Of a stretch of DNA of 64,000 bases, positions 38,940 through 60,381 are shown in pieces. The position numbers were made by a program, and so were the translations under genes. Every line of letters begins with the position of its first letter. The first letter of the stretch is position 1. The notes under the pieces are model-generated. The model made no database searches. It was given only the letters and a program-made list of their open reading frames with translations, and was not told the DNA's origin. The stretch is from Neoarius graeffei (Eukaryota > Chordata > Actinopteri > Siluriformes > Ariidae), in assembly GCF_027579695.1 (NCBI RefSeq), contig NC_083577.1, forward strand, positions 31,795,198-31,859,197. Direction: 5' to 3'.

Positions 38940-39240
38940 AGGTCATAGGCAAGGGTCGGAGGTGGAACGTAGAATATCAACTCTATTGTCTAGAAGAACG
39001 ACCCAAAAAGCGAATTCAATCTTCCTGGTGTCTAATTTGCACCCTAAAATTGAATAAAACGGTTAAAATATACTGGTTTGTGCAACTTCTGAAGGTTTGT
39101 TTACATCTCACTTATGTGCACTTTCACTGCCAGGGGGCCGTCATTGTGACGTCATTCAAGACAAACAGACTGGGAGCAGTTCTGTGTTTACTTGCGAAAC
39201 GAGCACAAGTGTGGACTTTGGTCGTGAGAGGTCGTGTAAA

Positions 39241-39468
39241 ATGTCTGAAAGCGATAGCGATTTTGAAGTAGGAACTCTCCAAATTAAAATATCGAGAGGT
39301 GAAACCATATATGTATGTACTCGCTTCACGCGTACTATGGCCGTTGCAAAGCAACCAGTGAATGTGGCTCACTGGTTTGACCATGCAGTCTCGGAATCGG
39401 ACAGCGACTCGGATCGCAGTGACCCCGGACCTCAACAAGACTCACGCCCAAACGATTTATCCTGGTAG
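39241..39468 (+). CDS. Acidic short ORF of TTAA element
   Basis: MSESDSDFEVGTLQIKISRG, later HAVSESDSDSDRSDPGPQQD, then NDLSW and stop. A GTAGTT just before the stop could be a splice donor, making this exon 1 of a longer gene. The Asp/Ser-rich N-terminus resembles acidic first exons of several transposon-derived fish proteins, but it is too short to assign. It converges on the THAP exon. Confidence 0.4.
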   Translation: MSESDSDFEVGTLQIKISRGETIYVCTRFTRTMAVAKQPVNVAHWFDHAVSESDSDSDRSDPGPQQDSRPNDLSW

Positions 39469-39740
39469 TTATGATAAATTCTTACTTTTGTCGTAATACT
39501 AAATAAGAGCCCTTTTGAAGAATAATTAAACCACACGGGCGCACACATAATCCCTATAATATAAGGTGGATTCGTTTATATTGCTAATAAAATATATTGC
39601 TAATAGTAACACAAGCATTATACTATTTATAGCCTACTCTAAGCAGGAAAATATCCTTTCTGTCTCATTTCCACAATGATTGTACAGGATCCCTCAGGAT
39701 TCTTGACTTGTCATTTGCAAGCAAAGGTAAAGATGTTTAC

Positions 39741-40044
39741 CTCCAATCTTCTCCTTTTTGCTTGAGCATTGCTGCTCAGTTTCTTCTTTGACTGCTTGAT
39801 TTTGTGTTTTAATTTTGTCGGAACAGCGTCAGGTTTGAGCCTTCTCTGTCCGACACTGACACCTAAACTCCCCAACAGACGGGGATTCTTCAAAAAGTGA
39901 TCGGAGCACAGAGTGGCGTATTTACCCGGCTGCCAACCCTCTCACTTCACGCGTACAATCCACTCTCTCCGCCTCTTTCGGAAAAAGGTGAAAACTTCTT
40001 CCTGAACCGGTCCTGTTGTTACAGTTCACTGCACAACAAGGCAT
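39741..40044 (-). pseudogene. THAP exon of TTAA element, broken
   Basis: ATG at 40044 reads MPCCAVNCNNRTGSGRSFHL, then FPKEAE. A one-base insertion follows and an in-frame TGA (likely a CpG-derived change of CGA) lies a few codons on. The rest is in the shifted frame: YATLCSDHFLKNPRLLGSLG, then RRLKPDAVPTK and a Lys-rich tail to GAG/GTAAAC donor. All THAP landmarks (C-x4-C, C-x2-H, AVPT) are visible across the two frames. Confidence 0.75.
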
Positions 40045-40675
40045 GGGTTTTCTTTGGAAATTCCCGAACACACATCTGCACTCAAGCCAAACGGCAATGC
40101 AAATAAACGGAAGTGGACTCAACTCAAGCGGTTTGTTTGTCTTGAATGACATCACGCGCCGAGTGGTCACGAAAATCGCTGAGCAGAAATTCGCCGCGAT
40201 CCGCGCTAACTTATTTTAATTATTACTTATTAACGATATTTCTTGGGACCAGAAGAAAATTACAGAGGGTTTTTTAAACATATAAAAGTTTCAAATGTGC
40301 ATAAATTGAAAACCTTTGCCTATGACCTTTAAAACCGGTTCCTGCACAGGTAACCCAGGCTGACGATTTGTATAAGATGTATGTACTGTATACAAATTAA
40401 TATATTAAAAAAAAAAAAATTGTCCAAATTTCACAAATAAAGCTTAGATTGCAAGAAAACAAGTGTACTTACCGTTTCATGCATGTATTTGGTCATTTTA
40501 AGCATATTTTAGCCATTTTTTGGGTACCCCATACTCTTCGGTTACCTAAAAAAATAAGGTTGGAGACTCCAGCGAACCACCACGCCAAGTCACTCTGCTT
40601 CCACCTGATTTTCTTTTGACTAAAAACAAGGATTCTTCCAGATTTAAACCCACCAGGTAAAAGAAGAATGTCTAA

Positions 40676-41520
40676 GGATATCCAGGAGGTATTTCAATAC
40701 AAAATATATTTTAACTAATAGTATAAATTTCACCGTTTAATTATGAAAAGCAACAGGCCAAACTTCTTGCCAGGGAAAATCTGGACGGAAACGAATACGT
40801 CACACCACAGGAAACCCAAAACCAAACATTATCTCGAAGCTGATTGGACCATTATGAACAAAAGATAATTCAAACACTCTTACTAGGGCAAAAGTAGTTC
40901 GACAAATCAAAGCTAAGCAGGGGAGGGTATAATAATATGGCAGCCAATCAGAAACACACCTGACGAAGCCGGGGGGGGGGGGGGGGGGGGGGGGGGGGTG
41001 TTGCCAATTTTAAATCCCAAACCGACTCTGTAACAACTGTAAATAAACCAAAATGTTAAAACTGAAAATGTGAGATAACATTCAAGGTGTTAAGAAAATC
41101 AAAGGATGTTCTGCATCTTTCTATGTATCGCTGAAAACCTGGCAAGTTAGGAAATTAGATCGTCGTCACTGCGATGTTATTTTTCAATAATTTAAAAATA
41201 CGAAAACTCTATTCAAATCCTTCCTGTTTTATAGGATTTTGAAACATTACGAGCCTACGATTGGTAGTTTGGTCTTTCGAGATGATGTTGTGGCTCATGC
41301 TACCAGAGACATAGAAAATATCCAGCCAAGTCTACTGAATTATCTATTGTTCGTAACGGTCCAATCAGCTTCGAGATAACGTTTGGTTTCGGTTTTCCTG
41401 TGGCGTGACGTACTCGTTTCCGTCCAGATTTTCTGTGGCCTGTTGCTTTTTGTAATTAAACGGTAAAATTTATACTATTAGTTAAAAGATATTTTGTATT
41501 GAAATACCTCCTGGATATCC
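40676..41520. mobile_element. Long-arm palindromic MITE, TTAA-flanked
   Basis: The arms (from 40676 GGATATCCAGGAGGTATTTC) are repeated inverted to 41520 over roughly 190 bp. TTAA follows at 41521 and CTAA precedes. The centre contains a long poly-G (40970-40998). Confidence 0.75.
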
Positions 41521-41821
41521 TTAAGCCAGTATCTCACTGGGCTGCGACAGCCCGCGACTAGTTGGACACACAATTGCGATAAAATATGCGAATTAGCAAC
41601 AATTTTCACTTGGAATCACACTGAATTGATATTCGCATATTTTACCGCAATTGTTCTGTCTCCAACTAGTCGCAGGCTAGCCTGGGAAATCCCATGCTGC
41701 TTTGCACACTCGTTCCGATCTGAAAAGACAGCATGGAAACTATGGTCTAAAGGCTCGCCGGAGTTAGGGAGCCAATCAGAGAGTGGGGAGGGGTGGAAAG
41801 ACGGTGACGCGTACTACAGGC

Positions 41822-41948
41822 CGGTGATGACCTGGCGACTTGTCCAAGGTGTACCCCGCCTTTCGCCCGTAGTCAGCTGGGATAGGCTCCAGCTTGCCTG
41901 CAACCCTGTAGAACAGGATAAAGCGGCTAGAGATAATGAGATGAGATA
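41822..41948 (+). mobile_element. V-SINE 3' fragment
   Basis: The last third of the V-SINE, from GGTGATGACCTGGCGACTTG to the ATGAG tail. Confidence 0.85.
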
Positions 41949-42016
41949 TTAATTTGTATACAGTACATACATCATCTTATACAAATCATCAGCCTGGGTC
42001 ACCTGTGGTTCCTGCT

Positions 42017-42823
42017 GTGACGTCACGCACTCAGGGCTGGTTGGGGCAGCTCAATACCAACTTTATGGTCGATTTTAACTCTCAAAAATAGATATATTTT
42101 TAATTTCCCATTTCTGCAGCATACAAGAGTCAAGGATAGAGATACTATCCACTCAGAAATGTATTTAAAAATAAAGGCTGTGCGTCTCTGCTTTAACTTA
42201 TTTGTGTTGTCTCAATAAAAACACACTGTACCACCACACCACAGCTGACTTATCTAATTTTATATAAATACATATAACGTACATTTACCAAAACAAAGCT
42301 TTAATGAAGGGTAAGACGTTATAAATAAACTCAAACTAGTTTATTTAAACGCCATGTTTATGACTTGAGTCCTCATGTGGATTCCCTTGGAGGATGCACT
42401 CTGCTAATTAGCTTTTGTGATGCTAATTCATTAAGCTCAGGTCATTAGTTTGGCTCTGAAAAAACATTGCACATTTTATAATACAAGTAAATAAAGAGAA
42501 TTCGTTCATAAATTACCAGACAATGTGTAGGGTAAGCCACAGTTATTACACGCCACTGCAGGGTCCATCATGATGCTTCTTCAGCACAGCCAAGAGAAAG
42601 ACAAAAACAACAACTTTGCCTTTTTCACTCCTGGGCTCACTGGATCTTTTTAGTGAGTCGGTTCATTTGATTCAACTCTTTAATAAGAGCCGATTCCTTC
42701 GACTCCCGTACGAATCATTGCTATTTTTTGGGGGGGGGGGGGGGGGGGTGTTTGTTTGTTTGTTTGTTTTAAATCTGAATCAGAAACGTCCATCCATTAT
42801 AATGATCAAAATTATACATACAG
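42017..42823. other. No gene recognised
   Basis: AT-rich intergenic sequence between the rnf17-like and dnajc3 genes; poly-G at 42730-42749. Confidence 0.4.
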
Positions 42824-42899
42824 CGGGGGTGTCGTGGCTCAGGTGGATAAGGCGCCATACCATAAATCCAGGGACCCGGGTTCGATTCCCGATCCCTCC

Positions 42900-42930
<31 letters not shown>

Positions 42931-43001
42931 CCGCTCATTTCCTGTCTCTACACTGTCCTATCCAATAAAGGTGAAAAAAGCTCCCCCCCCAAAAAAAAAA
43001 G
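42824..43001 (+). mobile_element. tRNA-derived SINE (CGTGGCTCAGGTGG type)
   Basis: A box GTGGCTCAGGTGGATAAGG, B box GGGTTCGATTCC, (TC)n, then CCAATAAAGGTGAAAAAAGC and an A tail. Perfect duplication TTATACATACAG (42812-42823, 43002-43013). Same family as 13055-13225. Confidence 0.92.
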
Positions 43002-43046
43002 TTATACATACAGTACACCTAATATTTGGGTAAAATGTCTCTTCAC

Positions 43047-43419
43047 GGCGGCACGGTGGTGTAGTGGTTAGCGCTGTCGCCTCACAGCAAGAAGGTCCTG
43101 GGTTCGAGCCCCGGGGCCGTTGAGGGCCTTTCTGTGTGGAGTTTGCATGTTCTCCCCGTGTCCGCGTGGGTTTCCTCTGGGTGCTCCGGTTTCCCCCACA
43201 GTCCAAAGACATGCAGGTTAGGTTAACTGGTGACTCTAAATTGACCGTAGGTGTGAATGTGAGTGTGAATGGTTGTCTGTGTCTATGTGTCAGCTCTGTG
43301 ATGACCTGGCGACTTGTCCAGGGTGTACCCCGCCTTTCGCCCGTAGTCAGCTGGGATAGGCTCCAGCTTGCCTGCGACCCTGTAGAAGGATAAAGCGGCT
43401 AGAGATAATGAGATGAGAC
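43047..43419 (+). mobile_element. V-SINE, full length
   Basis: Perfect 11-bp duplication TGTCTCTTCAC (43036-43046, 43420-43430). Confidence 0.93.
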
Positions 43420-43454
43420 TGTCTCTTCACAAGAGTCACCTTGACCAAACATTT

Positions 43455-44890
43455 GTGACCCCTCACCAAATCCAGGGACACGTCAGCCGAAACGAATCCG
43501 AGATAATCGCAAAAGAAGCTTTTTTTTTTTTCAAAATTTGTGATTTTTGTTTTTTTCCATCATGTGCAAGTTGAGATCTTGAAGAATGCAATCAGTATTT
43601 CAGATAATAGATTGTTTTGTTGGAAAAGCATACATTTTTTGTTGCAAATTGTCTCGTTTTTGTCAGGACTGTAGCCTGCTGGGGGGTGTGGGTAAATTAC
43701 CATATGGGCCATTCACATGATGATTTAAGTCTTTTGTTGTTGTTTTTTCACGAATCAGCTGTATGATACGAGCTGAGCGCATGGCTACTTAAGCTGCATA
43801 CAGGCATGTAATTTCACTATGGAATGAGTTACTAAACACAGCGCAGAGGAGCTGAAACACCGCGAAGCAAACAGACACACGGTATTTACATCGGAGATAA
43901 CCATTTCTAGCAAAAAAAAACGCAACCTCATTTTCCAGATTGAATGGAATACTTGAATGATCGGATGATACACGGACCGTTCTAGGACTACTTTCCATCG
44001 GAGGCATTGATGTGTGCAAGGCGCCGTTTCTCTTTCTGATGGGGTAAGTTTATTAATCTAAGGCTGTGTGGTTATTTTTGCATGTAACGGAGAGTGTTGT
44101 GGTTTGGTTAAGCCTAGGTCACAACCGGACATACGATTTTTTGGCCGTGTGATTTTTGGCGTTTCCCAAATCGCTGCGTTTTTTTTTTTGTTCATGGAGA
44201 AAGACGCGCGTTGGCCATAAGTTTGTCTTGCAACTTGAAAAAAATGTAAGCGCCCGTAGAGTTTGTTTGACATGACAAAGAACCTCTGCGGCCAGTCTGC
44301 GGCTGGTCTGCAGCTCGAAAATCAGCACGTCACACGCGCGCTCTTGTGCGTTTTTTGCGTGTAGACTGGCCATAGGAGCACGGTACGGCCGGTTGTGACT
44401 GAGGCTTTACATGAAACTAGCGTTGTGTTAGTTGTGTCATCATTGTGCTATCTTTCTTTCTTATAGTGTAATTTTTCAGCCACAAAACGTTAAAGTATAC
44501 TTTAGGACTTATTTTTGTAGTTCATAATTGTTTTGGGCATACTTTGCATGGAAGGAAAATTGACGTGGTGATCTTTGTTTACATGAAAGTAGCATCGTGC
44601 TAGCTAGTAGGGGGTAGGGCTTTCCTTAATGTCATGCAGATGAGCACCATTATGTGCCCGCCCTACACCCAGAGTAGCTGAGATGGAAAACTTTGAGGGT
44701 GATTTTCTCCCTTTTCTGTTTTAAGAAGTATACACTTTCAAAAGGCCACACATTCTTCAAATATTGTCAGATCTCCACATGGAAGGCATCATTGGAAAGC
44801 TTAGAAACTGTACTTTCTGAATCTGTCAATAACTCAAAATGCCCCCGGGCCGACATGTGTCCCTGGATTCTGTTTTCTGACACATTTTTG
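43455..44890. mobile_element. TIR transposon F, copy 2
   Basis: Same ends and body as 12145-13440. It lacks the SINE found in copy 1 and instead carries a Harbinger-type MITE at 44111. Confidence 0.7.
44111..44406. mobile_element. PIF/Harbinger-type MITE, TTA TSD
   Basis: AGCCTAGGTCACAACCGG and inverted AGCCTCAGTCACAACCGG, flanked by TTA on both sides. Copy 1 of transposon F has the empty site (GGTTACATG near 12773), which proves the 3-bp duplication. Confidence 0.88.
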
Positions 44891-44999
44891 TTTGCCATGA
44901 ACAAGCTTCTGGCAGAATTCTGGTTGAATATTTCATGACTCTTCATGGTAGAATTGGTAGAGTTCAATTAAATGTTTTTTTTTTCTTGGCATGGACTCG

Positions 45000-45850
45000 A
45001 CTTATAAGCACGGTCCATATATTTTCAATAGGGTTGAAGTCAGGACTTGTTTTAAGCTTAATGTTAGCCTGCTTTATCCTCCACAACCAGCTCTGATGCG
45101 TGTTTGGGTTTATTGTCCTGTTGTAACTCCCAAGTCCCAAGTCCTGTTCAAGTTTCTGATGGTTTATGCTGAAGAATTCTGAGGTAGTCCTCCTTCTTCA
45201 TTATTCCATCCACGTGGCCAAACAACTCAATCTTTGTCTCATCTGACCATACAGCTTTCCTCCAGAAGGCTTTTTCTTTGTCTGTTTGATCAGCTTCAAA
45301 CTTTAGTTAAGCTTGAAGGTGTCAATTTTGGAGCAGTGGGTTATTTCTTAGATAGCAGCCTCTCAGTCCATGGTGATCTGAACTGTAGACAGTGATCTAT
45401 CAGCTTCCAGTTCATAGCAGGGCTGTGCCATGGTGGTTCCCAGGTTGTTCCTGACCATCCAAACCAATTTCCTTTCAGCTGAGGGTGACAGTTTGGGATT
45501 TCTTGAAGCAAAATGGCTTGGCAAAGTGACTACACCTTACAATAACTTGGACACAATTGTTTGAACTGATCTTGGAATTTGCAGTTGTTTAGAAATGGCT
45601 CCAAGAGACATTCCAGAGTTGTGTATATCTGCAATCCTCTTTCTCAGATCTGCACTGAGCTCCCTGGACTTTCCCATTTTGCTGTGTGTCAGTCAATCCA
45701 ATGAGTGCTGTAAACAAACCCTTTTTATGAAGGCACAGAGAAGCTACCAGCTGTAGTCAATCATGATCACTAACAAGAAGTTAAGAGACTTCGGCCTTGG
45801 CAAGATAAGAGACATTTTGGAAGTTTCAGCACCTCTGAATTAATAATCTA
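45000..45850 (-). pseudogene. Tc1-like transposase pseudogene
   Basis: ATG at 45677 reads MGKSRELSADLRKRIADIHN and SGMSLGAISKQLQIPRSVQT, the paired-like helix-turn-helix of Tc1 transposases, then a stop. Downstream text on the minus strand (TCTGGAGGAAAGCTGTATGG, GCCACGTGGATGGAATAATG) is typical Tc1 coding but heavily mutated. Confidence 0.75.
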
Positions 45851-46492
45851 AGTGAACATATATAAATTTTTGACCCTGTAGGTATAATTTTGACCTTGTG
45901 TTGATTTCAGAAAACCCAAAGAAAATTAAAACTTGTGCACCAAATTCGAGTAGTTTTTTTATTAAAGATGTATGCTGTACAATCATTCTACCACAGAAAA
46001 AGAACAGTTCAAAGAAATTACTGAAAGCCCAAATATTGCCATGACATTCATATCCAAGATGACATTCATGTCACTGTATGTAAACCACACTTGTATATGA
46101 CAGACTAGTGCAGAGTAAACTCACCATTTAATACTGTTAAACCAATTGGTTCTCAATAGAGGGCTCAAACAACACCAAGAAACCAGCAAAACCTAGTGAT
46201 ATCAGCACTGGGTTTGAGAAAGGTTGACATGCACATTATGTACTATTAACATGAACTGTGAAGATGATTTTGGGAATAGATTGGGTGGACCTTTGGAGGT
46301 GGATTTTTTCATTGGTCTTCTGTGCATCAGATACAGCTTGTGGCACACTTACATTCATCTCATCCATTGTTTGCTCAGACACACTTGGCATCACAGCCAA
46401 GAACCTGATACACACAAGGGAAATATCCAAACAACTATCCTATCTAAAAGAGTTCCAACTGATGATGATTTAGCCAGAAATGATATGCTATC
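45851..46492. other. No gene recognised
   Basis: Unassigned intergenic sequence. Confidence 0.4.
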
Positions 46493-46870
46493 AGGCAGCA
46501 CAGTGGTGTAGTGGTTAGCACTGTCGCCTCACAGCAAGAAGGTCCTGGGTTCGAGCCCAGTGGCTGGCGAGGGCCTTTCTGTGTGGAGTTTGCATGTTCT
46601 TCCCATGTCTGCATGGGTTTCCTCCGGATGCTCCGGTTTCCCCCACCGTCCAAAGACATGCAGGTTAGGTTAATTGGTGGCTTTAAATTGACCGTAGGTG
46701 TGAGTGTGAATGGTTGTTTGCCTCTGTGTCAGCCTTGCGATGACCTGGCAACTTGTCCAGGGTGTACCCCGCCTCTCACCCATAGTCAGCTGGGATAGGC
46801 TCCAGCTTGCCTGCAACCCTGTAGGACAGGATAAGCGGCTACAGATAATGAATGGATGGATGGATGGATA
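46493..46870 (+). mobile_element. V-SINE, GGATG-tail subtype
   Basis: A more diverged copy ending in (GGAT)n rather than ATGAG. Confidence 0.88.
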
Positions 46871-47096
46871 GTTTAGGTCCTTTTATGGTTAAATGGGTAT
46901 CTAATGTATGAACCATGCTTTTGACCTGAGTAAAAAGGTTGTGTGCCACAAATAACACCTATTATGGATATAATAATTGCATATTAATGATGTAATACTT
47001 TTAGACCAATTTCCTATGTGGTTTCAGGGCTCTTTTTATGCCCAAAGTTCCCCTGCATGATTAACTATGAAACAGCAGCCTACTGTACAAACATTA

Positions 47097-47466
47097 GAAG
47101 AAGAAACCTTTATTCATCACATGCACACTTCAAGCACAGTGAGATTCATCCTCTGCATTTAACCCATCTGAAGCAGTGAACACACACACACCCGGAGCAG
47201 TGGGCAGCCATACTACAGCGCCCGGGGGAGCAGTCAGGGGTTAAGTACCTTACTCAAGGGCACTTCAGCCCAAGGCTGCCCCATGTTAACCTAACTGCAT
47301 GTCTTTGGACTGTGGGGGAAACCGGAGCACCTGGAGGAAACCCACGCAGACATGGGGAGAACACGCAAACTCTGCACAGAAAGGCCCTCGCCAGCCGCTG
47401 GGCTCGAACCCAGAACCTTCTTGCTGTGAGGCGACAGTGCTAACCACTACATCACCGTGCCGCCCA
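47097..47466 (-). mobile_element. V-SINE, alternative 3' end
   Basis: V-SINE head and core (47466-47286) joined to a different 3' part (GGGCAGCC..., CAAGGGCACTTCAG, ACCCATCTGAAGCAGTGAAC). The same combination is at 59366-59680. Confidence 0.85.
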
Positions 47467-47570: not shown

Positions 47571-49176
47571 CAACCCTGATTCCAAAAAAGTTGGGACAAA
47601 GTACAAATTGTAAATAAAAACAGAATGCAATGATGTGGAAGTTTCAAAATTCCATATTTTATTCAGAATAGAACATAGATGACATATCAAATGTTTAAAC
47701 TGAGAAAATGTATCATTTAAAGAGAAAAATTAGGTGATTTTAAATTTCATGACAACAACACATCTCAAAAAAGTTGGGACAAGGCCATGTTTACCACTGT
47801 GAGACATCCCCTTTTCTCTTTACAACAGTCTGTAAACGTCTGGGGACTGAGGAGACAAGTTGCTCAAGTTTAGGGATAGGAATGTTAACCCATTCTTGTC
47901 TAATGTAGGATTCTAGTTGCTCAACTGTCTTAGGTTTTTTTTTGTCGTATCTTCCGTTTTATGATGCACCAAATGTTTTCTATGGGTGAAAGATCTGGAC
48001 TGCAGGCTGGCCAGTTCAGTACCCGGACCCTTCTTCTATGCAGCCATGATGCTGTAATTGATGCAGTATGTGGTTTGGCATTGTCATGTTGGAAAATGCA
48101 AGGTCTTCCCTGAAAGAGACGTCGTCTGGATGGGAGCATATGTTGCTCTAGAACCTGGATATACCTTTCAGCATCGATGGTGTCTTTCCAGATGTGTAAG
48201 CTGCCCATGCCACATGCACTAATGCAACCCCATACCATCAGAGATGCAGGCTTCTGAACTGAGCGCTGATAACAACTTGGGTCGTCCTTCTCCTCTTTAG
48301 TCCGAATGACATGGCATCCCTGATTTCCATAAAGAACTTCAAATTTTGATTCGTCTGACCACAGAACAGTTTTCCACTTTGCCACAGTCCATTTTAAATG
48401 AGCCTTGGCCCAGATAAGACGTCTGCGCTTCTGGATCATGTTTAGATACGGCTTCTTCTTTGAACTATAGAGTTTTAGCTGGCAACGGCGGATGGCACGG
48501 TGAATTGCGTTCACAGATAATGTTCTCTGGAAATATTCCTGACCCCATTTTGCGATTTCCAATACAGAAGCATGCCTGTATGTGATGCAGTGCCGTCTAA
48601 AGGCCCGAAGATCACGGGCACCCAGTATGGTTTTCCGACCTTGACCCTTACGCACAGAGATTCTTCCAGATTGTCTGAATCTTTTGATGATATTATGCAC
48701 TGTAGATGATGATATGTTCAAACTCTTTGCAATTTTACACTGTCGAACTCCTTTCTGATATTGCTCCACTATTTGTCGGTGCAGAATTAGGGAGATTGGT
48801 GATCCTCTTCCCATCTTTACTTCTGAGAGCCGCTGCCAATCCAAGATGCTCTTTTTATACCCAGTCATGTTAATGACCTATTGCCAATTGACCTAATGAG
48901 TTGCAATTTGGTCCTCCAGCTGTTCCTTTTTTGTACCTTTAACTTTTCCAGCCTCTTATTGCCCCTGTCCCAACTTTTTTGAGATGTGTTGCTGTCATGA
49001 CATTTCAAATGAGCCAATATTTGGCATGAAATTTCAAAATGTCTCACTTTCGACATTTGATATGTTGTCTATGTTCTATTGTGAATACAATATCAGGTTT
49101 TGAGATTTGTAAATTATTGCATTCCGTTTTTATTTACAATTTGTACTTTGTCCCAACTTTTTTGGAATCGGGGTTG
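47571..49176 (-). mobile_element. Complete Tc1 element, nearly intact
   Basis: TA on both sides (47569, 49177). Termini CAACCCTGATTCCAAAAAAG and inverted CAACCCCGATTCCAAAAAAG, extending as long arms of about 200 bp with an internal repeat of the AAAAAAGTTGGGAC motif (47766, 48976), the IR/DR layout of fish Tc1 elements. Length 1.6 kb. Confidence 0.93.
47930..48868 (-). CDS. Tc1 transposase, one C-terminal frameshift
   Basis: 312 codons; the likely start is the internal ATG at 48814 ([20 protein letters not shown]). Two helix-turn-helix parts ([20 protein letters not shown]) are followed by catalytic D in [16 protein letters not shown] in [11 protein letters not shown] and E in [11 protein letters not shown], the DD34E set of Tc1. 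A slip in an A9 run near 47935 ends the ORF early; the other frame stays open to a stop at 47791, giving about 45 more residues. Only this lesion is visible. Confidence 0.9.
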
Positions 49177-50582: not shown

Positions 50583-53500
50583 CCTGGATCCACATACATA
50601 TCTGGATTTACATCAAAATCTAATCAACTGTTCCTTGGCCCATAGCACACTTTTCCTCCAAATTTCATCAAAATCCGTTCACTACTTTTTGAGTTGTGTT
50701 GGGAACAGACAAAAAAAAAAATAATAATAAAATAATCCTGGCTCTACATACATATCTGGATTTACAACAAAATTTAATCAATTGTTCCTTGGCCCATAGC
50801 GCACCTTTCCTCCAAATTTAATCAAAATCCGTTCACTACTTTTTGAGTTACGTTGAGAAGTCAAATGAACAAACGGAGATGAAAACATATTCTCCTCCAA
50901 CAAAGTTGGAGGAGGTAATAGCAAGCATAGTGAAATGCAATGGTATTATTCTAGACAATCGTTTGTCACTATATAAAAATAAGAGGGTAAGTCAAAAAGT
51001 TCTAAGTAGGAAAAAAATCATTTATGAAAATAAAGATATTTCTCTACATATCCTCCATTTAAGTCTAAACACATCTGCAAGCGATGCTTCCATTGGAGAA
51101 TTCCTTTTGAAATTATAACATCTGTCTTAGAACTTTGACTTACCCTTGTGTGTGTATATTATAATATACACTTTTTTTTTTTTTTTGTCCTATAGTGGTG
51201 CTTGAAAGTTTGTGAATCCTTTATAATTTTCTTGATTTCTGCATAAATATGACCTAAAACATCATCAGATTTTCACACAAGTCCTAAAAGTAGATAAAGA
51301 GAACCCAGTTAAACAATTGAGACAAAAATATTATACTTGGTCATTTATTTATTGAGGAAAATGATCCGGTGGCACGGTGGTGTAGTGGTTAGCGCTGTCG
51401 CCTCACAGCAAGAAGGTCCTGGGTTCGAGCCCCGTGGCCGGCGAGGGCCTTTCTGTGTGGAGTTTGCATGTTCTCCCCGTGTCTGCGTGGGTTTCCTCCG
51501 GGTGCTCCGGTTTCCCCCACAGTCCAAAGACATGCAGGTTAGGTTAACTGGTGACTCTAAATTGACCGTAGGTGTGAATGTGAGTGTGAATGGTTGTCTG
51601 TGTCTATGTGTCAGCCCTGTGATGACCTGGCGACTTGTCCAGGGTGTACGCCGCCTTTCGCCCGTAGTCAGCTGGGATAGGCTCCAGCTTGCCTGCGACC
51701 CTGTAGAAGGATAAAGCGGCTAGAGATAATGAGATGAGATGAGGAAAATGATCCAATATTACATATCTGTGAGTGGCAAAAGTATAATATTGGATCATTT
51801 TCCTCAATAAATAAATGACCAAGTATAATATTTTTGTCTCATTTGTTTAACTGGGTTCTCTTTATCTACTTTTAGGACTTGTGTGAAAATCTGATGATGT
51901 TTTAGGTCATAGTGATGCAGAAATATAGAAAATTCTAAAGGGTTCACAAACTTTCAAGCACCACTGTATATCTTGGTCTGAGTTTATTTTTGATTACAGG
52001 AGTGCTATGCAGCAGTGAGAACAGTATAGAGAAGCACCTAGAGATGGGGAAGAAGCTCCTGGCTGCTGGACAGCTGGCTGATGCGCTTTCCCATTTCCAT
52101 GCAGCTGTTGGTGAGTTGGTGGGAGTTCTCAGGAAGTCACCAGCAATTGTTTCTTTTGTCTTATTTCGGCATCATAATATTCTTTCTGGAGATGGCACTG
52201 TAGTGCAGTGGCTAACACTGTCGCCTCACAGCAAAGAGAGTCTGGGTTCGAATTTGCCAGCCAATTCTGGCCTTTTTTGTGTGCATGTTTTCTTTGTTTC
52301 TGTATGGGTTTCCTCTGGGTGTTCTGGTTTCCTTCTACAGTCCAAAGACATGCGTATTAGGTCAACTGGATACTCTAAATTGTCCATAGGTGTGTGTATG
52401 TGAGCATGAATGGCAATCTGTTGCTCCGTGTTAGTATGGCAACCTGTCTAGGGTGTACCTCGACTTGGATAGGCTCCAGCTCACCTGTGAACTACAATGG
52501 GTAATCAGCATAATGAATGAATGAACCTTCTGACCTCTGTGTGTAGATGGTGACCCAAAAAACTACATGGCCTACTACAGAAGAGCCACAGTCTACCTGG
52601 CCACGGGGAAGTCGAAATCCGCTTTGCCGGATCTGAGCAAAGTCATCGAACTCAAACCTGATTTCACATCGGTGAATTTTACACTGTGATGAGACATGTA
52701 TATGAAATGAAGATTACTGTACATCATATGTAAAAGAGTTGTCAGTAACCAGTGATCTGTCACAGGCACGACTTCAGAGAGGGAACCTACTACTGAAACA
52801 GGGAAAGCTTGATGAAGCTGAGAGTGATTTCAAAAGAGTGGCAAGTAACTGTTTGATAACTCTCTGACCATCCTGAACAACATGCATTTTTGATAATTTA
52901 TAATTAATACGTGACCTCCATGATTAACATTCTGAGTTGACTGTTTTTTTTTAAATTTGGACTTCTTTCATAGACTTGTTGGTCATGTTTCTCTTGAATT
53001 AAGTTTCCTATGTTGCCCACAATGCAGTTGGACGACGTGCAGATATTAGTCCCAGTGAAATTTAGCAAACTTCAACTTTCATGCTAATACCACCACCAGT
53101 GCCATTGTGTGCATCATCTCTCAGATCACTAATTAGCCAGGTCAAGCCTTGCAGCGGGCAGCACGGTGGTGTAGTGGTTAGCACTGTCGCCTCACAGCAA
53201 GAAGGTCCTGGGTTCGAGCCCAGCGGCCGGCGAGGGCCTTTCTGTGTAAAGTTTGCATGTTCTCCCTTTGTCTCCGTGGGTTTCCTCCGGGTGCTCCGGT
53301 TTCCCCCACAGTCCAAAGGCATGCAGGTTACGTAGGTTAACTGGTGGCTCTAAGTTGACCGTGAGTGTGAATGGTTGTCTCTGTCAGCCTTGCAATGACC
53401 TGGTGACTTGTCTAGGGTGTACCCCGCCTCTCGCCCATAGTCAGCTGGGATAGGCTTCAGCTTGCCTGCGACCCTGTAGAAGGATAAAGCGGCTAGAGAT

Positions 53501-56500
53501 AATGAGATGAGATAAGATGTTGCCCACAATGCAATTGGACGACGTGCAGATATTAGTCCCAGTGAAATTTAGTAAACTTCAACTTTCATGCTAATACCAC
53601 CACCAGTGCCATTGTGTGCATCATCTCTCGGATCACTAATTAGCCAGGTCAAGCCTCGCAGCGGGCAGCACAGTGGTGTAGTGGTTAGCACTGTCGCCTC
53701 ACAGCAAGAAGGTCCTGGATTCGAGCCCAGCGGCCGGCGAGGGCCTTTCTGTGTAAAGTTTGCATGTTCTCCCCGTGTCTGTGTGGGTTTCCTCCGGGTG
53801 CTCCGGTTTCCCCCACAGTCCAAAGGCATGCAGGTTACGTAGGTTAACTGGTGACTCTAAGTTGACCGTGAGTGTGAATGGTTGTCTCTGTCAGCCCTGT
53901 GATGACCTGGCGACTTGTCCAGGGTGTACCCCGCCTCTCGCCTATAGTCAGCTGGGATAGGCTCCAGCTTGCCTGCGACCCTGTAGAACAGGATAAGCAG
54001 CTACGGATGATGGATGGATGGATGGAAGCCTCACAGCGCAACTGTCATATAGCTGCTTTACATTCACAAACATTTGCTGTCTTCACTATTCCCCCCCCCC
54101 CACTATATTGATGTTGCTGGAAATGGTGAGTTAGAAAGGAAGCTCTAGCAAGTTTGCTTTTAGGAGCTAAGTGGAGCATGAAGCTTATAATACAGACAAG
54201 GTCGAATTTCAACCTTCAGCCAGAAGAGTAAACTGTATCTATCTGGCAGCAAGGCTCTTGGAAGCCTTGGTATGTTGTCAGTGTGTTAATTCCATTTTCC
54301 AGAAAATTACAGAACATTGCATTATAGGCATTTAGCAGATGCTCTTATCCAGAGCGACACACAACATACCTAGAGCAGCCTGGGAGCAGGTGCCTTGTTC
54401 AAGGGCACTTCAGCCATTCCTGCTGGTCCAGGGAATTGAACCAGCAACCTTTCGGTCCCAAAACAACTACTCTAACCATTAGGCCATGGCTTCCTCTTAT
54501 GAACATGCTTTATAAGTGTTCAAACCAAGATGATGCAAATGTGATGCTTTCTGTGTGTGTCTTTTATTTCACTGTACTCTGTAGCTGAAATCAAACCCCA
54601 GCAGTAGAGATGAGAAGGAAGCTCAGAGCCAGCTGAAAAAATCAGATGAAATCCAGAGATTGGTGACTGAGGCTCAGAGCAGTTTCAAGCGCAAAGACTA
54701 CAGCTCAGCGGCTACACTGCTGGACACGGTTATTGAAGTGAGTTAGCTACTGTACTGTTGACATTTGATTAATATCAAAATCAGACCTAAAATTTACCCC
54801 AGATGCAATACCCAAGCAATGTATGAGTAGATTATGGAGCTTTCTGACTCTTCTGTAAATGTCATCAGAATGAACCAGAATCCTGTTCAAATGTGAGTTT
54901 TAAATGCTCTTATATACACAACCGTGACAGTGGACTAGGTTGAATTACCCATTAAAGCTTCAGGTAAAAATTCATAAGAGAGTTAGCTGGTGAAAACCCC
55001 CCAGCATCAATGTATTACCCTGGCTACCCATGCTACTGTAATGAGTACTCATGTAAATAAGTACTTACCGTACTTAAGGCTTTATAGCTGCAGCCCACAC
55101 CACCATGTGTTACTGTAATTTGGCTGGACATAATGTTACTGTATATTGTAATACTCCTATATAAGAGGATGGGTAAACACGGCCAGGTTTTTTTATTATT
55201 ATTATTATTATTATTTTTTTTAAAGTTTAGTTTTAGTCTTTTGTGTGAATTGGTCTTTAATTTCACACATGCAGACATGGGGTGGCACAGTGGTGTAGTG
55301 GTTAGCGCTGTCGCCTCACAGCAAGAAGGTCCGGGTTCGAGCCCCGTGGCCGGTGAGGGCCTTTCTGTGTGGAGTTTGCATGTTCTCCCCGTGTCCGCGT
55401 GGGTTTCCTCCGGGTGCTCCGGTTTCCCCCACAGTCCAAAGACATGCAGGTTAGGTTAACTGGTGACTCTAAATTGACCGTAGGTGTGAATGTGAGTGTA
55501 AATGGTTGTCTGTGTCTATGTGTCAGCCCTGTGATGACCTGGCGACTTGTCCAGGGTGTACCCCGCCTTTCGCCCGTAGTCAGCTGGGATAGGCTCCAGC
55601 TTGCCTGCGACCCTGTAGAACAGGATAAAGCGGCTAGAGATAATGAGATGAGATGAGACATGCAGACATCATTTTGAAATGTTATGACTTCATAAGTTGC
55701 CTGAGACACTAAACCAGAGGTGTCCTTCACTGGCTGGTGCTGCAATAATAATGGTACCCATAAATGCATTCTATTAAATCAAGGCTATTCAATAAGACTT
55801 GATCCAGTAAGTTTTGCAATGATCCAGCTACATTCAAATCCTGATAACGACAAGCCAATTACAAAAAAGTTGGAATGCTGTGTAAACTGTAAATAAAACC
55901 AAAATGCGATAATTTGCAAATCACGGAAACCCTGTATTTAATTGAAAATAGTACAAAGACAACATATCAGATGTTGAAACTGAGAAATTGTTTTTTGAAA
56001 AAATATATGCTCACTTTGAATTTGATGTCAGCAACACGTTTCAGAAAAGTTGGGACAGGGACATGTTTACCACTGTGTTGTATCACCTCTACTTTTAACA
56101 ACACTCTGTAAATGTTTGGGAACTGAAATCAGTTACTGTAGTTTTGAAAGAAAAATGTTGTCCCATTGTTGTCTGATATACAATTTCGGTTGCCCAACAG
56201 TTCGGTGTCTCCTTTGTCGTATTTTGTGCTTCATAATGCAGCAAATGTTTTAAATGGGAGACAGGTCTGGACTGCAGGCAGGCCAGTTTAGCACCCGGAC
56301 TCTTTTACTACGGAGTCATCCAGTTTTAATATATTCAGAAAGCAATTTAGCATTGTCTTGCTGATAGAAGGAAGGCCTTCCCTGAAAAAGATTTTGCTTG
56401 AATGGCAGCATATTGCTCTGAAACATGTAAAATTTCTCAGTTTCAACATTTTGATATATTGACTTTGTACTATTTTTTTTTTCCAATGAAATATAGGGTT

Positions 56501-58871
56501 TCCATGATTTTTGTAAATTATTGCATTCTGTGTTTATTTACAGTTTACACAATGCCCCAACATTTTTGGAATTGAGGTTGTACAGCATGGCAACCTTTTT
56601 AAAGGGCATATCACGGGTAAATTCAGGCACGAGATCAATGTAATTCTCCTATTTTATATTAAACTTTGGTCAAATATCTGTAACATTCTGCATTCTCTGC
56701 AATTTTTTTACCTTGCGCAATACCAGAAAAATTCAGTTGAAATCAAGCCATTTGAGGTGAATTGGTCCGCCTCTGAAAAAACTTGGCATTTGGATTTCCC
56801 GGGAAACATTGATTTTCGTGACATCTTCTGCGGGACGCCTCCCTCTGAATCCTACGTCAGCGCTGGTTTGTTTGAGAAAACGACCTGGTGGTTTTCTGCA
56901 AATTTCTTCAACGTTATCATGTAATTATTAAAATGGTTAACAGATGTATCGTAGGAGGGTGTAGCAACACCAATCATGATGGGATTAGTACTCATCGTTT
57001 CCCAAAAGACCGGACAATGAGAGAGAAATGGGAGCGCTTGGTCTACACAGGCTGTGCACTGAAACCGTGCAAAGCTCTTGCAGCCTGCTGGCGCTTCCGC
57101 AGGTGACGTCACGAATCTGGCTCCAATCTCCCTTGGGATTTTTCCAGACGCGTTTTATTATTATTTTTTTCTGCTGTAGACGGATGGCCTTGTGCAAAAT
57201 TACCCTTCTAGATGAGTGTGTAAAGGGACATACTTTCATATTAAAAAAAAAAAAAAGAAATTTGGTCCAGAATATGCAATTTAATGCTTGGTCAATTCAT
57301 GGCTATAAATAGTGCACGTCAGATTGAAGTGGTTATGTTTTGGTTTGTATTACCCATTGTATTTACTCACTGGACTATTAACAAATGAAACATTTGCTTC
57401 ATGGAGAAGCAGGAAGAATAAACTCAATTTTTTGGTCTTTATTCCTTTGCCTGTTTTCCTTGTTAATATTATGCCATTCAGCCTCCACATTTGTCTTCTG
57501 TAGATATGTTGGTGACTGAGTGGCAGCCATTTGAGAAATTAAATTTGGAGCACACTTCAGCCAGTGCAGTATATTGGTTTTACGACCCCTACTGTGGCTG
57601 TGTTTTCCATAGACATGTGTGTGGGACGTTTACTCCAGAGAGCTTCGAGCTGAGTGTTTCATTCAGTTGGGTGAGATGGGCAAAGCCATCAGTGACCTTA
57701 AAGCAGTATCCAAACTGAAGAACGACAACACGCAGGCTTTTTACCAGCTCAGTACCATCTATTACAACCTGGGAGATCATGAGATGTCCCTCAAGTAAGT
57801 TTCTGTGGGATTCAGCATCTGTTGCAGCAGGACCATTAACAGTGCTAGTACCCTTCAACGTGTAGTATTGTGGTGTGGTGATTTTATCAAGCTTGTAAAA
57901 CGCAAAGCTGGTTCTTCTGTGGTGGTATTCTGGCCACCAAAGCCTTAAAGGAACAGTCCACCGTATTTCCATAATGAAATATGCTCTTATCTGAATTGAG
58001 ACGAGCTGCTCTGTACCTGTCCGAGCTTTGCGCGACCTCCCAGTCAGTCAGACGCGCTGTCACTCCTGTTAGCAATGTAGCTAGGCTCAGCATGGCCAAT
58101 GGTATTTTTTGGGGCTGTAGTTAGATGCGACCAAACTCTTCCACGTTTTTCCTGTTTACATAGGTTTATATGACCAGTGATATGAAACAAGTTCAGTTAC
58201 ACAAATTGAAACGTAGCGATTTTCTATGCTATGGAAAGTCCGCACTATAATGACAGGCGTACTAACACCTTCTGCGCGCTTCGACAGCGCATTGATATCT
58301 GAGCTCCGTATCAATGCGCTGCCGAAGCGCGCAGAAGGTGTTAGTATGCCTGTCATTATAGTGCGGACTTTCCATAGCATAGAAAATCCCCATGTTTCAA
58401 TTTGTGTAACTGAACTTGTTTCATATCACTGGTCATATAAACCTATGTAAACAGGAAAAACGCGGAAGAGTTTGGTTGCATCTAATTACAGCCCCAAAAA
58501 ATACCATTGGCCATACTGAGCCTAGCTACATTGCTAACAGGAGTGACGGCGTGTCTGACTGACTGGGAGGTCGCGCAAAGCTCGGACAGGTACGGAGCAG
58601 CTCGTCTCAATTCAGATAAGAGCATATTTCATTATGGAAATACGGTGGACTGTTCCTTTAACCTTGAATTAACTTTTGGAGGTCGTGACAATCATAACAT
58701 GTACTTCATGTTCTAGGAAGATATGCTGACGCAATGCCTTTCTGTCGACAGTGAAGTGCGAGAGTGTTTGAAGCTGGATCCTGACCACAAGCAGTGCTTT
58801 AGCCACTATAAGCAGGTGAAGAAGCTCAACAAGCAGATCATATCAGCTGAGGAGCTGATCCAGCAGCAGAG
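49545..58871 (+). CDS. dnajc3: dnajc3 (P58IPK) gene, N-terminal exons
   Basis: ER-lumen co-chaperone of BiP that also limits eIF2-alpha kinase signalling; built of nine TPRs and a C-terminal J domain. Seven exons, 49545-49626, 52000-52110, 52547-52671, 52766-52840, 54585-54737, 57613-57794, 58752-58871, join in frame (848 nt, 282 codons plus two bases). Motifs shared with human DNAJC3 by recall include GKKLLAAGQLADALS, YYRRATVYLATGKSKSALPD, LQRGNLLLKQGKLDEAE, RELRAECFI and VRECLKLDPDHKQCF. The remaining TPRs and the J domain are beyond the window; no exon was found between 58872 and 64000. Human protein is 504 aa, so a little over half is here. Confidence 0.95.
50085..50920 (+). repeat. Five tandem ~155-bp units with (AAT)n spacers
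   Basis: Each unit reads ...AATCAATTGTTCCTTGGCCC...CAAATTTCATCAAAATCCGT...TTTTTGAGTTGTGTTGGGAA and is followed by a variable AAT/ATA run. The last unit ends in AACGGAGATGAAAAC...GGAGGAGGTAATAGC, the normal end of this dispersed family; only the first has the 5' part (CTCTGCCAAG). The array arose by local amplification. Confidence 0.85.
51191..51968. mobile_element. Palindromic Tc1-type MITE hosting a V-SINE
   Basis: Arms TATAGTGGTGCTTGAAAGTT and inverted TACAGTGGTGCTTGAAAGTT are complementary over about 190 bp each. TA-based ends. The SINE sits at the centre of the palindrome. Confidence 0.9.
51368..51740 (+). mobile_element. V-SINE, full length
   Basis: Perfect 14-bp duplication GAGGAAAATGATCC (51354-51367, 51741-51754). 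Confidence 0.95.
52000..52110 (+). CDS. dnajc3: dnajc3 exon 2
   Basis: GVLCSSENSIEKHLEMGKKL then LAAGQLADALSHFHAAV; first TPR. Acceptor TTGATTACAG, donor GTTG/GTGAGT, phase 1. Confidence 0.95.
52191..52525 (+). mobile_element. Old, diverged V-SINE
   Basis: Recognisable head (CACTGTCGCCTCACAGCAAA) and core (CAGTCCAAAGACATGCG) with many changes and a (GAAT)n tail. It ends only about 20 bp from exon 3, so it supplies part of the polypyrimidine-side intron sequence. Confidence 0.8.
52547..52671 (+). CDS. dnajc3: dnajc3 exon 3
   Basis: DGDPKNYMAYYRRATVYLAT then GKSKSALPDLSKVIELKPDF; TPRs 1-2. Acceptor GTGTGTAG, donor TCG/GTGAAT, phase 0. Confidence 0.95.
52766..52840 (+). CDS. dnajc3: dnajc3 exon 4, GC donor
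   Basis: ARLQRGNLLLKQGKLDEAES then DFKRV. The 3' end is GTG/GCAAGT: a GC donor with otherwise ideal consensus. The nearest GT (GCAA/GTAACT, four bases on) would break the frame with exon 5. Confidence 0.93.
53011..54025 (+). repeat. 507-bp tandem duplication containing SINEs
   Basis: The 145-bp text TGTTGCCCACAATGCA...GTCAAGCC at 53011-53155 recurs at 53518-53662 with four to five changes, each followed by a V-SINE at the same junction. Lies in dnajc3 intron 4. Confidence 0.9.
53156..53512 (+). mobile_element. V-SINE in duplication unit 1
   Basis: Follows GCCTTGCAGCG; has the ATGAGAT tail. Confidence 0.9.
53664..54027 (+). mobile_element. V-SINE in duplication unit 2
   Basis: Follows AAGCCTCGCAGCG and is followed by AAGCCTCACAGCG (its duplication); has the GGATGG tail, unlike unit 1. 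Confidence 0.9.
54318..54500 (-). mobile_element. tRNA-derived SINE (GGCCTAATGGTTAGAG type)
   Basis: On the minus strand: CATGGCCTAATGGTTAGAGT (A box), GGTTGCTGGTTCAATTCC (B box) and the 3' end GCTCTGGATAAGAGCATCTG then CTAAATGCC, shared with fish L2/CR1-type LINE tails. Confidence 0.85.
54585..54737 (+). CDS. dnajc3: dnajc3 exon 5
   Basis: LKSNPSSRDEKEAQSQLKKS then DEIQRLVTEAQSSFKRKDYS and SAATLLDTVIE; TPR 3-4. Acceptor CTCTGTAG, donor GAA/GTGAGT, phase 0. Confidence 0.95.
55279..55657 (+). mobile_element. V-SINE, full length
   Basis: Perfect duplication ACATGCAGACAT (55267-55278, 55658-55669). In dnajc3 intron 5. Confidence 0.94.
55845..56582 (-). mobile_element. Internally deleted, diverged Tc1 element
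   Basis: Ends and body resemble the Tc1 at 47571-49176 (AAAAAAGTTGGAATGCTGTG; GTTGGGACAGGGACATGTTT; TTTTTGGAATTGAGGTTGTA) with many changes; the transposase N-terminal half is gone. Confidence 0.75.
56603..57280 (+). mobile_element. TTAA element copy 1, keeps THAP end
   Basis: TTAA at 56599-56602 and 57281-57284. Ends AGGGCATATCACGGG and inverted ATTGCATATTCTGGACC. Sister of 59682-60381: both ends and the last 230 bp match. This copy retains the left-end THAP start codon region. Confidence 0.82.
56934..57106 (+). pseudogene. THAP N-terminus in TTAA element
   Basis: ATG at about 56934: MVNRCIVGGCSNTNHDGIST then HRFPKDRTMREKWERLV, the first half of a THAP finger. At about 57040 it runs into sequence belonging to the opposite end of the element (shared with 60140), so the rest is deletion-junction read-through, not protein. 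Confidence 0.75.
57613..57794 (+). CDS. dnajc3: dnajc3 exon 6
   Basis: TCVWDVYSRELRAECFIQLG then KAISDLKAVSKLKNDNTQAF and YQLSTIYYNLGDHEMSL; acceptor TTTTCCATAG, donor AA/GTAAGT, phase 2. Confidence 0.95.
57949..58657. mobile_element. 709-bp near-perfect palindrome, TTAA-flanked
   Basis: TTAA at 57945-57948 and 58658-58661. Starts AGGAACAGTCCACCGTATTT and ends in its complement; arms of about 350 bp meet near 58303 with almost no spacer. Non-autonomous. Lies in dnajc3 intron 6, between coding exons. Confidence 0.92.
58752..58871 (+). CDS. dnajc3: dnajc3 exon 7
   Basis: NEVRECLKLDPDHKQCFSHY then KQVKKLNKQIISAEELIQQQ, donor AG/GTGAGT, phase 2. The following intron runs to the window end. Confidence 0.95.
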
Positions 58872-59365
58872 GTGAGTACTACTAGCAAATTGCAAGCACA
58901 AATCGTATCATTGCAGTTTCACCAGTGAAAATCAGTAATGAAGGGAAATGAAGTTATAATAATGTGACAAATGGAGCAAGACATACACACCTAAACTTTG
59001 TATCATATCAAAACCCATGGTATAATAAATTTAAGACCATCGAAAGCTCCTCAAATTTCCTACATCAGCTATACACTTTTTTTCTTCCCTTTTCAAAAGA
59101 TACATTTAGTAATATCTACCACCTTTCTCGAATCATCCCTTTCTCCAGAAACCCCTGTGCTGGTTCATGACAGTTTGTTCACCAGCTTCTCTGCTATAGA
59201 TCTTTGAACTCGATACTAAATAGTGATCCTGAACCTGTCGGCTCACCCCTGCTCCTACTTTCCTCCTCAGAGCTTGTCTCTGTTCTGTCTACTCCTATTG
59301 GCTCATTTAATAAATTCATGTCTATTTTCTGGTTCTGTTCCCTCAGCCCTTAAAGAGGGATATAT

Positions 59366-59680
59366 GGGGTGGCACAGTAATGTAGTGGTTAGCACCGTCA
59401 CCTCACAGCAAGAAGGTTCTGGGTTCGAGCCCAGCAGCTGACGGGGGCCTTTCTGTGTGGAGTTTGTATGTTCTCCCTGTGTCTGCGTGGGTTTGCTCCG
59501 GGTGCTCCGGTTTCCCCCACAGTCCAAAGACATGCAGTTAGGTTAACATGGGCTGAGGTTGGACTGAAGTGCCCTTGAGCAAGGCGCACAACCCACAACT
59601 GCTCCCTGTAGCATAGCTGCCTACTCCTCTGGATGTGTGTGTTCACTGTTTCAGATGGGTTAAATTTCACTGTGTGCTTA
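59366..59680 (+). mobile_element. V-SINE, alternative 3' end
   Basis: V-SINE head and core, then GGTTGGACTGAAGTGCCCTT...GATGGGTTAAATTTCACTG. Same subtype as 47097-47466. It abuts the TTAA element to its right. Confidence 0.87.
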
Positions 59681-59681
59681 A

Positions 59682-60381
59682 AGTGCATATCACGGGTAAC
59701 GTCAGGAGCGAGATCAATGTAATTCTCCTATTTTATATTAAACTTTGGTCAAATACCTGTCACATTTTGTGCAATTTTTTTTACCTTGCGCAATACCAGA
59801 AAAATTCAGTTGAAATCCAGCCATTTGAGGCGAATTGGTCCGCCTCTGAAAAAACTTTGGCATTTGGATTTCCCAGCAAACATTGATTTTCATGACGTCA
59901 CGTGCGGGACGCCTCATTCTGAACCCTACGTCAGCGCTGGCTTGTTTATGAGAAAACGACCGTATTATTTACATCCCTGGTGTTGTCGCCGTCATCTTCA
60001 CTACTTGAATCATCATCAAATCCAAAAAGATGAAGCCCCAATTCTGACATCTCATTATATTCTTCATCCAAAGGTGAAGTAACATTGCGCTCAGGTGACA
60101 ATTCCATATTTCAATGCAAAATCGCTCGCTGCTAAACTTGGTCTACACAGGCTGTGCACTGAAACCGTGCAAAGCTCGCGCAGCCTGCTGGCGCTTCCGC
60201 AGGTGACGTCACGAATCTGGCTCCAGACTCCCTTGGGATTTTTCCAGACGCGTTTTATTTAATTTTTTTCTCCTGTAGACAGATGGCCTTGTGCAAAATT
60301 ATCCTTCTGGATGAGTGTGTAAAGGGACATACTTTCATATATAAAAAAAAAACAAACCAAAAATGGTCCAGGATATGCACT
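59682..60381. mobile_element. TTAA element copy 2, keeps acidic-ORF end
   Basis: TTAA at 59678-59681 and 60382-60385. Ends AGTGCATATCACGGG and inverted AGTGCATATCCTGGACC. The left 250 bp and right 240 bp match copy 1; the middle instead holds a minus-strand acidic ORF. Confidence 0.85.
59952..60113 (-). CDS. Acidic short ORF in TTAA element copy 2
   Basis: ATG at about 60113 on the minus strand: MELSPERNVTSPLDEEYNEM, SELGLHLFGFDDDSSSEDDG, then DNTRDVNNTVVFS and a stop formed where it joins left-end sequence. Acidic and Ser-rich like 39241-39468. A GT at AACACCAGG/GATGTA is not a clear donor. Confidence 0.4.

What the first reader, a model, noticed from the sequence alone, without database searches (positions are those of the whole stretch)
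38940..60381. TTAA-flanked elements with two converging genes: THAP at one end, acidic ORF at the other
Three elements (38940-40328, 56603-57280, 59682-60381) have TTAA at or next to both ends and inverted termini beginning AGG or AGTG. The first keeps both gene starts pointing at each other. The other two are sister copies that share both ends, but one keeps only the THAP start and the other only the acidic ORF on the opposite strand. Together they imply a parent element with two convergent genes. TTAA targets plus THAP fit the Kolobok superfamily; the acidic partner gene is the part I cannot place and could be a second required protein.
Basis: partly seen in the sequence, partly recalled or inferred. 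Interest (0 to 1): 0.8.

Follow-up and report, generated by a model that had tools for sequence, protein, structure and literature searches.

The report
Crippled two-gene fish Kolobok transposons
These are shortened, no longer self-sufficient copies of a known kind of fish jumping gene whose parent carried two genes facing each other; both gene starts sit behind the same type of promoter-like motif, and the second gene is probably, but not provably, the known partner protein KolX.

Summary
In detail: three elements lie at the stated coordinates with TTAA at 5 of 6 boundaries, inverted ends, and THAP and acidic gene starts. Elements 2 and 3 share about 285 bp on the left and 250 bp on the right; one keeps only the THAP start, the other only the acidic start. 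They read as two different deletions of one parent with convergent genes; element 1, from another family, keeps both starts. TTAA, mostly RR/YY termini and THAP fit Kolobok. Two-gene Koloboks are published: lineage Kol0 encodes a transposase plus KolX, a P2X7-ballast protein. KolX is the best candidate for the acidic gene, but the pieces end before the ballast domain and comparisons with KolX N-termini were negative or inconclusive. New here: a CRE-like TGACGTCA block lies 94-114 bp upstream of the gene starts (degraded in one copy), and 4 of 5 THAP starts found in the window have it within one mismatch; the motif occurs 9 times against 0.63 expected. The species' genome could not be searched, so no full-length copy was seen. 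Verdict: a new member of a known kind, with a testable promoter feature.

The parts
38940..40328 (.). Element 1: internally deleted Kolobok-type element keeping both convergent gene starts
   Evidence: Inverted pair 38936-38956 / 40312-40332, 90% over 21 nt including TTAG/TTAA
39241..39468 (+). Element 1 acidic ORF, 75 aa, pI 4.5; candidate KolX N-terminus
39738..40044 (-). Element 1 THAP gene start, with a frame shift near 39940
39146..39170 (+). CRE-like block upstream of the acidic gene (TGACGTCA at 39147-39154)
   Evidence: 25-nt inverted pair with 40131-40155, 92%
40131..40155 (-). CRE-like block upstream of the THAP gene (TGATGTCA, one mismatch)
56603..57280 (.). Element 2: sister deletion copy keeping the THAP start only
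56933..57043 (+). Element 2 THAP domain, N-terminal part (37 aa)
   Evidence: Pfam PF05485 E=7.8e-7
56819..56826 (+). Degraded motif TGACATCT (two mismatches) 114 bp before the element 2 THAP start
   Evidence: read; aligned
57104..57111 (.). TGACGTCA in the right end of element 2
59682..60381 (.). Element 3: sister deletion copy keeping the acidic start only
59946..60107 (-). Element 3 acidic ORF, 53 aa (about 49 before the deletion joint), pI 4.1
59893..59900 (.). TGACGTCA in the left (THAP-side) end of element 3
   Evidence: inverted pair 59889-59907 / 60197-60215, 89%
60204..60211 (.). TGACGTCA in the right (acidic-side) end of element 3

Best explanation
The three elements are non-autonomous, internally deleted copies of two families of Kolobok cut-and-paste transposons in a teleost. 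The parent had TTAA targets, AG-type termini, a THAP-headed transposase gene reading in from one end and a second gene reading in from the other, most likely KolX (acidic N-terminus plus zinc-binding ballast domain). Each gene was driven by a CRE-like promoter block inside its own end, so that host CREB/ATF/CREM-type factors would switch on both proteins together. Copies lost their middles, by inference through abortive repair after excision, and now move, if at all, only with transposase supplied in trans. Shown: ends, TTAA sites, THAP, acidic starts, convergent order, motif positions. Inferred: DDE transposase core, KolX identity, promoter function, joint expression, deletion mechanism.
For: Termini, TTAA and THAP. 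The two sister deletions, each keeping one gene start, and element 1 keeping both. Kolobok defined by TTAA and 5'-RR/YY-3', and the Kol0 lineage encoding KolX and found in vertebrates (PMC9587614); THAP usual in Kolobok transposases (PMC6004289). PF20478 proteins named 'P2X purinoceptor 7-like' occur in a range of teleosts; the N-termini of the 53 of 120 that could be delimited have pI 4.1-6.5 and median length 77 aa, as the two ORFs do (pI 4.1 and 4.5; 49 and 75 aa). MAFFT placed GLHLFGF under GIEPYRF and RPNDLSW under RLQNTEW. TGACGTCA 9 times against 0.63 expected, 94-114 bp before both kinds of gene start in elements 1-3 (with one mismatch before the element 1 THAP start and two before that of element 2).
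Against: No transposase core and no ballast domain was found in the elements; tblastn of 120 KolX proteins against the window gave nothing convincing (best 15 lines seen, best E 0.021, not at an acidic ORF). KolX identity failed the sensitive tests: no candidate for the element 3 ORF among proteins of the allowed length; profile scores reached by 50 to 1760 of 2000 shuffles depending on model, setting and ORF (lowest for the element 1 ORF, 50 and 69); hhalign probability 0.5 and 0.2 per cent; no PYxFEP block, shuffles equal or better in 1821 and 3326 of 5000, although 46 of 53 KolX N-termini have a PY.FEP-like motif. One of six ends (element 2, right) is AT, not RR. The elements may have gained different insides by capture instead of deletion.
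Confidence: 0.6

Rival explanations
1. Same Kolobok parent, but the acidic gene is a different accessory protein, not KolX, so these fish families are an undescribed two-gene Kolobok lineage.
For: The sensitive comparisons to KolX N-termini did not support KolX. Other Kolobok lineages carry other partners: DEDDh exonuclease, lambda-type nuclease, His-Me nuclease on the complementary strand, RecQ (PMC9587614).
Against: The ORFs have the size and acidity of KolX N-termini and stop at about the point where the ballast domain would begin; N-termini of fish KolX differ much among families, so a true KolX N-terminus could fail these tests too.
Confidence: 0.27
2. The acidic ORFs are not genes: chance ORFs in the end sequence of MITEs; the parent had only the THAP transposase.
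For: Short, one copy each in the window, no homologue found for the element 3 ORF.
Against: Two families with different ends each have a strongly acidic ATG ORF at the end opposite THAP, ranked 1 and 3 of 217 by D+E content, each 94-104 bp behind an exact TGACGTCA, much as the THAP starts are.
Confidence: 0.1
3. The elements belong to another TTAA transposon superfamily (piggyBac) or to a THAP-bearing superfamily with another target.
For: piggyBac also uses TTAA (PMC9587614).
Against: Five of six termini are AG (RR), which that paper uses to separate Kolobok from piggyBac; THAP domain present.
Confidence: 0.03

Closest known systems
Kolobok superfamily, Kol0 lineage (Kolobok-1_XT type; transposase plus KolX), PMC9587614
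   Same: TTAA target, RR/YY termini, two proteins, vertebrate hosts; THAP as usual in Kolobok transposases (PMC6004289)
   Different: Here only deleted copies; transposase core and ballast domain absent; acidic ORFs lack the PYxFEP-like motif seen in 46 of 53 delimited KolX N-termini; 'promoter' and 'subterminal' have no occurrence in that paper's main text
XKol / T2-MITE families of Xenopus, PMC6004289
   Same: TTAA, AG ends, THAP transposase, short non-autonomous relatives
   Different: Different terminal sequences; T2 motif AGGRR not met by these ends; no second gene in the passages I read
KolobokP of invertebrates, PMC9587614
   Same: Second gene on the complementary strand, downstream of the transposase
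   Different: Long terminal direct repeats and a His-Me nuclease; its authors found none in vertebrates
Nanor and P2X7 C-terminal ballast proteins, PMC7016195
   Same: Short proteins with the ballast domain behind a variable N-terminus; candidate relatives of the partner gene
   Different: Described there as genes of the host, with no mention of transposons in the text ('transpos' 0 occurrences)

Membership tests
Kolobok superfamily | TTAA target site duplication | tested here: met
   5 of 6 boundaries TTAA, 1 TTAG
Kolobok superfamily | Termini 5'-RR ... YY-3' | tested here: met
   Read inward from each end: AG/AG, AG/AT, AG/AG; 5 of 6 RR, the exception being the decayed right end of element 2 whose sister has AG
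Kolobok superfamily | THAP DNA-binding domain at the transposase N-terminus | tested here: met
   Element 2 E=7.8e-7 above the Pfam cut-off; element 1 two pieces below it
Kolobok superfamily | DDE catalytic core with C/DxxH and zinc motif | not testable with these tools
Kol0 lineage | Second protein KolX with ballast domain of 7 conserved Cys | not testable with these tools
   Both ORFs end before that domain would start
Kol0 lineage | Second protein resembles KolX N-termini | tested here: inconclusive
   Acidity and length fit; profile, PSSM and hhalign tests negative or inconclusive
T2-MITE (Xenopus) | Terminal AGGRR next to TTAA | tested here: not met
   Left ends begin AGGTC, AGGGC, AGTGC; right ends AGGTC, ATTGC, AGTGC
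piggyBac | Termini other than RR/YY (contrast drawn in PMC9587614) | tested here: not met
   5 of 6 ends are AG, one is AT

The most novel reading that the evidence does not exclude
Fish Kolobok transposons are two-gene elements with matched CREB/ATF-type promoters in both ends, so that transposase and an acidic partner are co-expressed in cells with high CREB/CREM activity such as the male germ line; and the partner may be a protein family not yet described.
Probability: 0.25. Interest if true: 0.6.

Novelty: new member of a known kind. Interest (0 to 1): 0.38.

Why it matters
The second Kolobok protein is the proposed source of the P2X7 ballast domain and of the nanor gene (PMC9587614, passages); I saw no role for it in transposition in what I read. 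Copies that keep both gene starts give ends and promoter-like blocks with which full-length parents can be found and tested. If the paired CRE-like blocks are real promoters, they would explain how a transposon keeps two separately transcribed genes in step, and in which tissue it jumps.

Tried and rejected
Search of the window's own genome: not answered in 8 calls, so copy number and full-length parents remain unknown. Protein database search with the element 3 ORF, proteins of about 108-345 aa only: nothing; the element 1 ORF was not searched there alone, only as a row of the profile. Profile, PSSM and profile-profile tests of the ORFs against KolX N-termini: negative or inconclusive. Search for KolX-coding contigs in viral and prokaryote collections, hoping for a KolX-THAP pair: none. 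Terminal pattern in viral contigs: one contig, taken as chance, not read. Right end for a further THAP-headed left end at 37775: none within 3 mismatches in the window. Rfam on the window: no match at gathering scores. The idea that TGACGTCA is an end-binding site at a fixed distance from the terminus (207/174, 216/169, 211/170 in elements 1-3, my reckoning from coordinates) was set aside because the left end at 37779 has its TAACGTCA 46 bp in but still 104 bp before the ATG. I first met two of the THAP starts (2250, 5763) by looking at TGACGTCA sites, so I repeated the count with a THAP pattern that ignores the motif.

Full report
What is there. The window is from a teleost by inference: exon-like ORFs between elements 2 and 3 (57619-57798, 58723-58875) resemble DNAJC3 (recalled resemblance, not searched). 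Element 1 spans 38940-40328. Its ends, with the flanking four bases, form a 21-nt inverted repeat at 90%. Left flank TTAG, right flank TTAA. Elements 2 and 3 are copies of a second family. Element 3 has TTAA on both sides and a perfect 15-nt inverted repeat, 10 nt of it inside the element; element 2 is more decayed, with TTAA on both sides and a right end that begins AT where element 3 has AG.

Two deletions of one parent. Elements 2 and 3 match over their left 285 bp or so (89%) and right 250 bp or so (92.8%), with no match reported in between. In element 2 the middle is 151 bp and begins a THAP gene on the + strand (ATG 56933). In element 3 the middle is 175 bp and begins an acidic ORF on the - strand (ATG 60107). 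The simplest account is one parent, left end - THAP gene > ... < acidic gene - right end, cut down by one deletion in each copy. Element 1, of another family, keeps both starts facing each other: acidic on the + strand (39241-39468), THAP on the - strand (from 40044, with a frame shift). Capture of different insides by the same ends is not excluded, but element 1 makes deletion likelier.

Superfamily. Published definition: Kolobok makes TTAA duplications and has 5'-RR/YY-3' ends, unlike piggyBac (PMC9587614; I read parts 1-2 of 6 of the text, section 10 and searched passages). Kolobok transposases usually carry a THAP domain (PMC6004289, searched passages only). The elements show TTAA at 5 of 6 boundaries, RR at 5 of 6 ends, and THAP by Pfam (element 1 below the cut-off in each of two pieces). 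The catalytic core is missing from every copy and could not be tested.

The acidic partner. PMC9587614 states that the Kol0 lineage encodes KolX beside the transposase, that KolX is similar to the P2X7 cytoplasmic ballast, and that Kol0 occurs in vertebrates. PMC7016195 (abstract, outline, searched passages) describes the same domain in nanor-like proteins with a short additional N-terminal region. I queried the protein database with a consensus recalled from memory and got 319 relatives at E<=1, 120 listed, all but one of these marked PF20478. A fish-weighted profile, which also held the two acidic ORFs as rows, gave 166 at E<=0.001, 120 listed. Of the first 120, 53 could be delimited by a WCxCxxC motif at residues 31-111 (67 dropped); 46 of these 53 have a PY.FEP-like motif; pI 4.1-6.5, median length 77 aa. 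The two window ORFs fit in acidity, length and position, and MAFFT puts GLHLFGF and RPNDLSW at the two KolX anchor sites (the alignment contained the ORFs by my choice). But the statistical tests do not establish it: BLAST at best 10 of 19 identities in an acidic run, E=0.004 against 120 sequences without composition correction (0.008 against 205); profile scores matched by shuffles in 1115, 761, 666, 69, 1760, 164, 306 and 50 of 2000 in the eight settings, the low values 69 and 50 being the element 1 ORF without null2 correction; PSSM of the PYxFEP block and hhalign negative. I therefore rate KolX as the likely identity by context, about two in three given a two-gene Kolobok, not as shown.

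Promoter blocks. Within element 1 and within element 3 the repeat finder lists only two inverted pairs each: the termini and one inner block, GTGACGTCATTCAAGACAAAC-type in element 1 (25 nt, 92%) and TTCRTGACGTCACSTGCGG in element 3 (19 nt, 89%) (ends aligned); element 2 has no such pair of its own in that list. The core TGACGTCA is the CREB/ATF consensus as I recall it. It lies 94 bp before the element 1 acidic start (one search prints 95 because I gave it 39242), 110 bp before the element 1 THAP start (one mismatch), 104 bp before the element 3 acidic start; in element 2 the THAP-side copy has two mismatches, TGACATCT, 114 bp before, while its sister keeps the exact site (59893). Exact sites in the window: 9, against 0.63 expected from 100 shuffles, none of which reached 9; with one mismatch allowed the excess is modest, 29 against 20.1, reached by 4 of 100 shuffles. 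Of the 9, four lie in elements 1-3, two upstream of other THAP starts (2169 before ATG 2250; 5628 before ATG 5763), and three elsewhere (375 and 29796, in what looks like two copies of another repeat; 42018, unassigned). A THAP-start pattern blind to the motif found 5 loci (6 rows, two for one locus); 4 of the 5 have the motif within one mismatch in the 200 bp upstream (two exact, two with one mismatch), against 5.8% of 2907 overlapping 200-bp tiles outside these areas. By my own binomial arithmetic that is about 5 in 100,000; since the motif was noticed in elements 1 and 3, the fairer count is the three other loci, 3 of 3, about 2 in 10,000, loci taken as independent. The distance to the ATG is kept (81-135 bp) and the distance to the terminus is not (46 against 169-216 bp), so a promoter site is likelier than an end-binding site. 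Full-text searches for transposon + THAP + TGACGTCA, for Kolobok + CREB + promoter, and for TGACGTCA + terminal inverted repeat gave 0, 0 and 1 paper, the last (PMC3459987, listing only) about a piggyBac fusion protein and AP-1 in humans. These cover only the open-access library held here.

Limits. The host species was not identified.

Noticed in passing
37775-38186 (+): A further THAP-headed remnant with a Kolobok-like left end (TTAA then AGTGATTCATATAGG), TAACGTCA 104 bp before the ATG and an 85-aa ORF with THAP-like halves ending in AVPTIK; no right end found within 3 mismatches.
   Followed up: partly
5628-5939 (+): Another THAP start (Pfam E=4.2e-9) with TGACGTCA 135 bp upstream and, by eye, a possible splice donor after ...CGEHIR; ends not found.
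   Followed up: partly
2169-2342 (+): A THAP-like start MVHFCAVFACSNRE (no Pfam match at E<=1) 81 bp behind TGACGTCA.
   Followed up: partly
39320-39338 and 39941-39959: A 19-nt direct repeat (89%) shared by the acidic ORF and the THAP region of element 1; unexplained.
   Followed up: no
57945-58661: A near-perfect foldback (353-nt arms, 97%, 11-nt loop) lies between elements 2 and 3.
   Followed up: no
30383-30595 (-): An acidic ORF (MAYWTEFSRPDFELPVEYPDVYNYLINFPSLFSGEALRAYKS...) that from recall resembles the N-terminus of the YqaJ-type partner gene of ISL2EU transposons; possibly another two-gene element cut down.
   Followed up: no
375 and 29796: TGACGTCA also sits in what looks like two copies of an unrelated repeat, near an ORF that from recall resembles a LINE protein.
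   Followed up: no
47930-48877 (-): A long open frame (315 aa, stop to stop) that from recall looks like a nearly intact Tc1/mariner transposase.
   Followed up: no
40345-40403 and 41946-42007: The right flank of element 1 is repeated in inverted form 1.6 kb away (92% over 62 bp), next to another TGACGTCA at 42018 whose ACGTCACAGCAGGAA also occurs, by eye, before the THAP start at 37929.
   Followed up: partly
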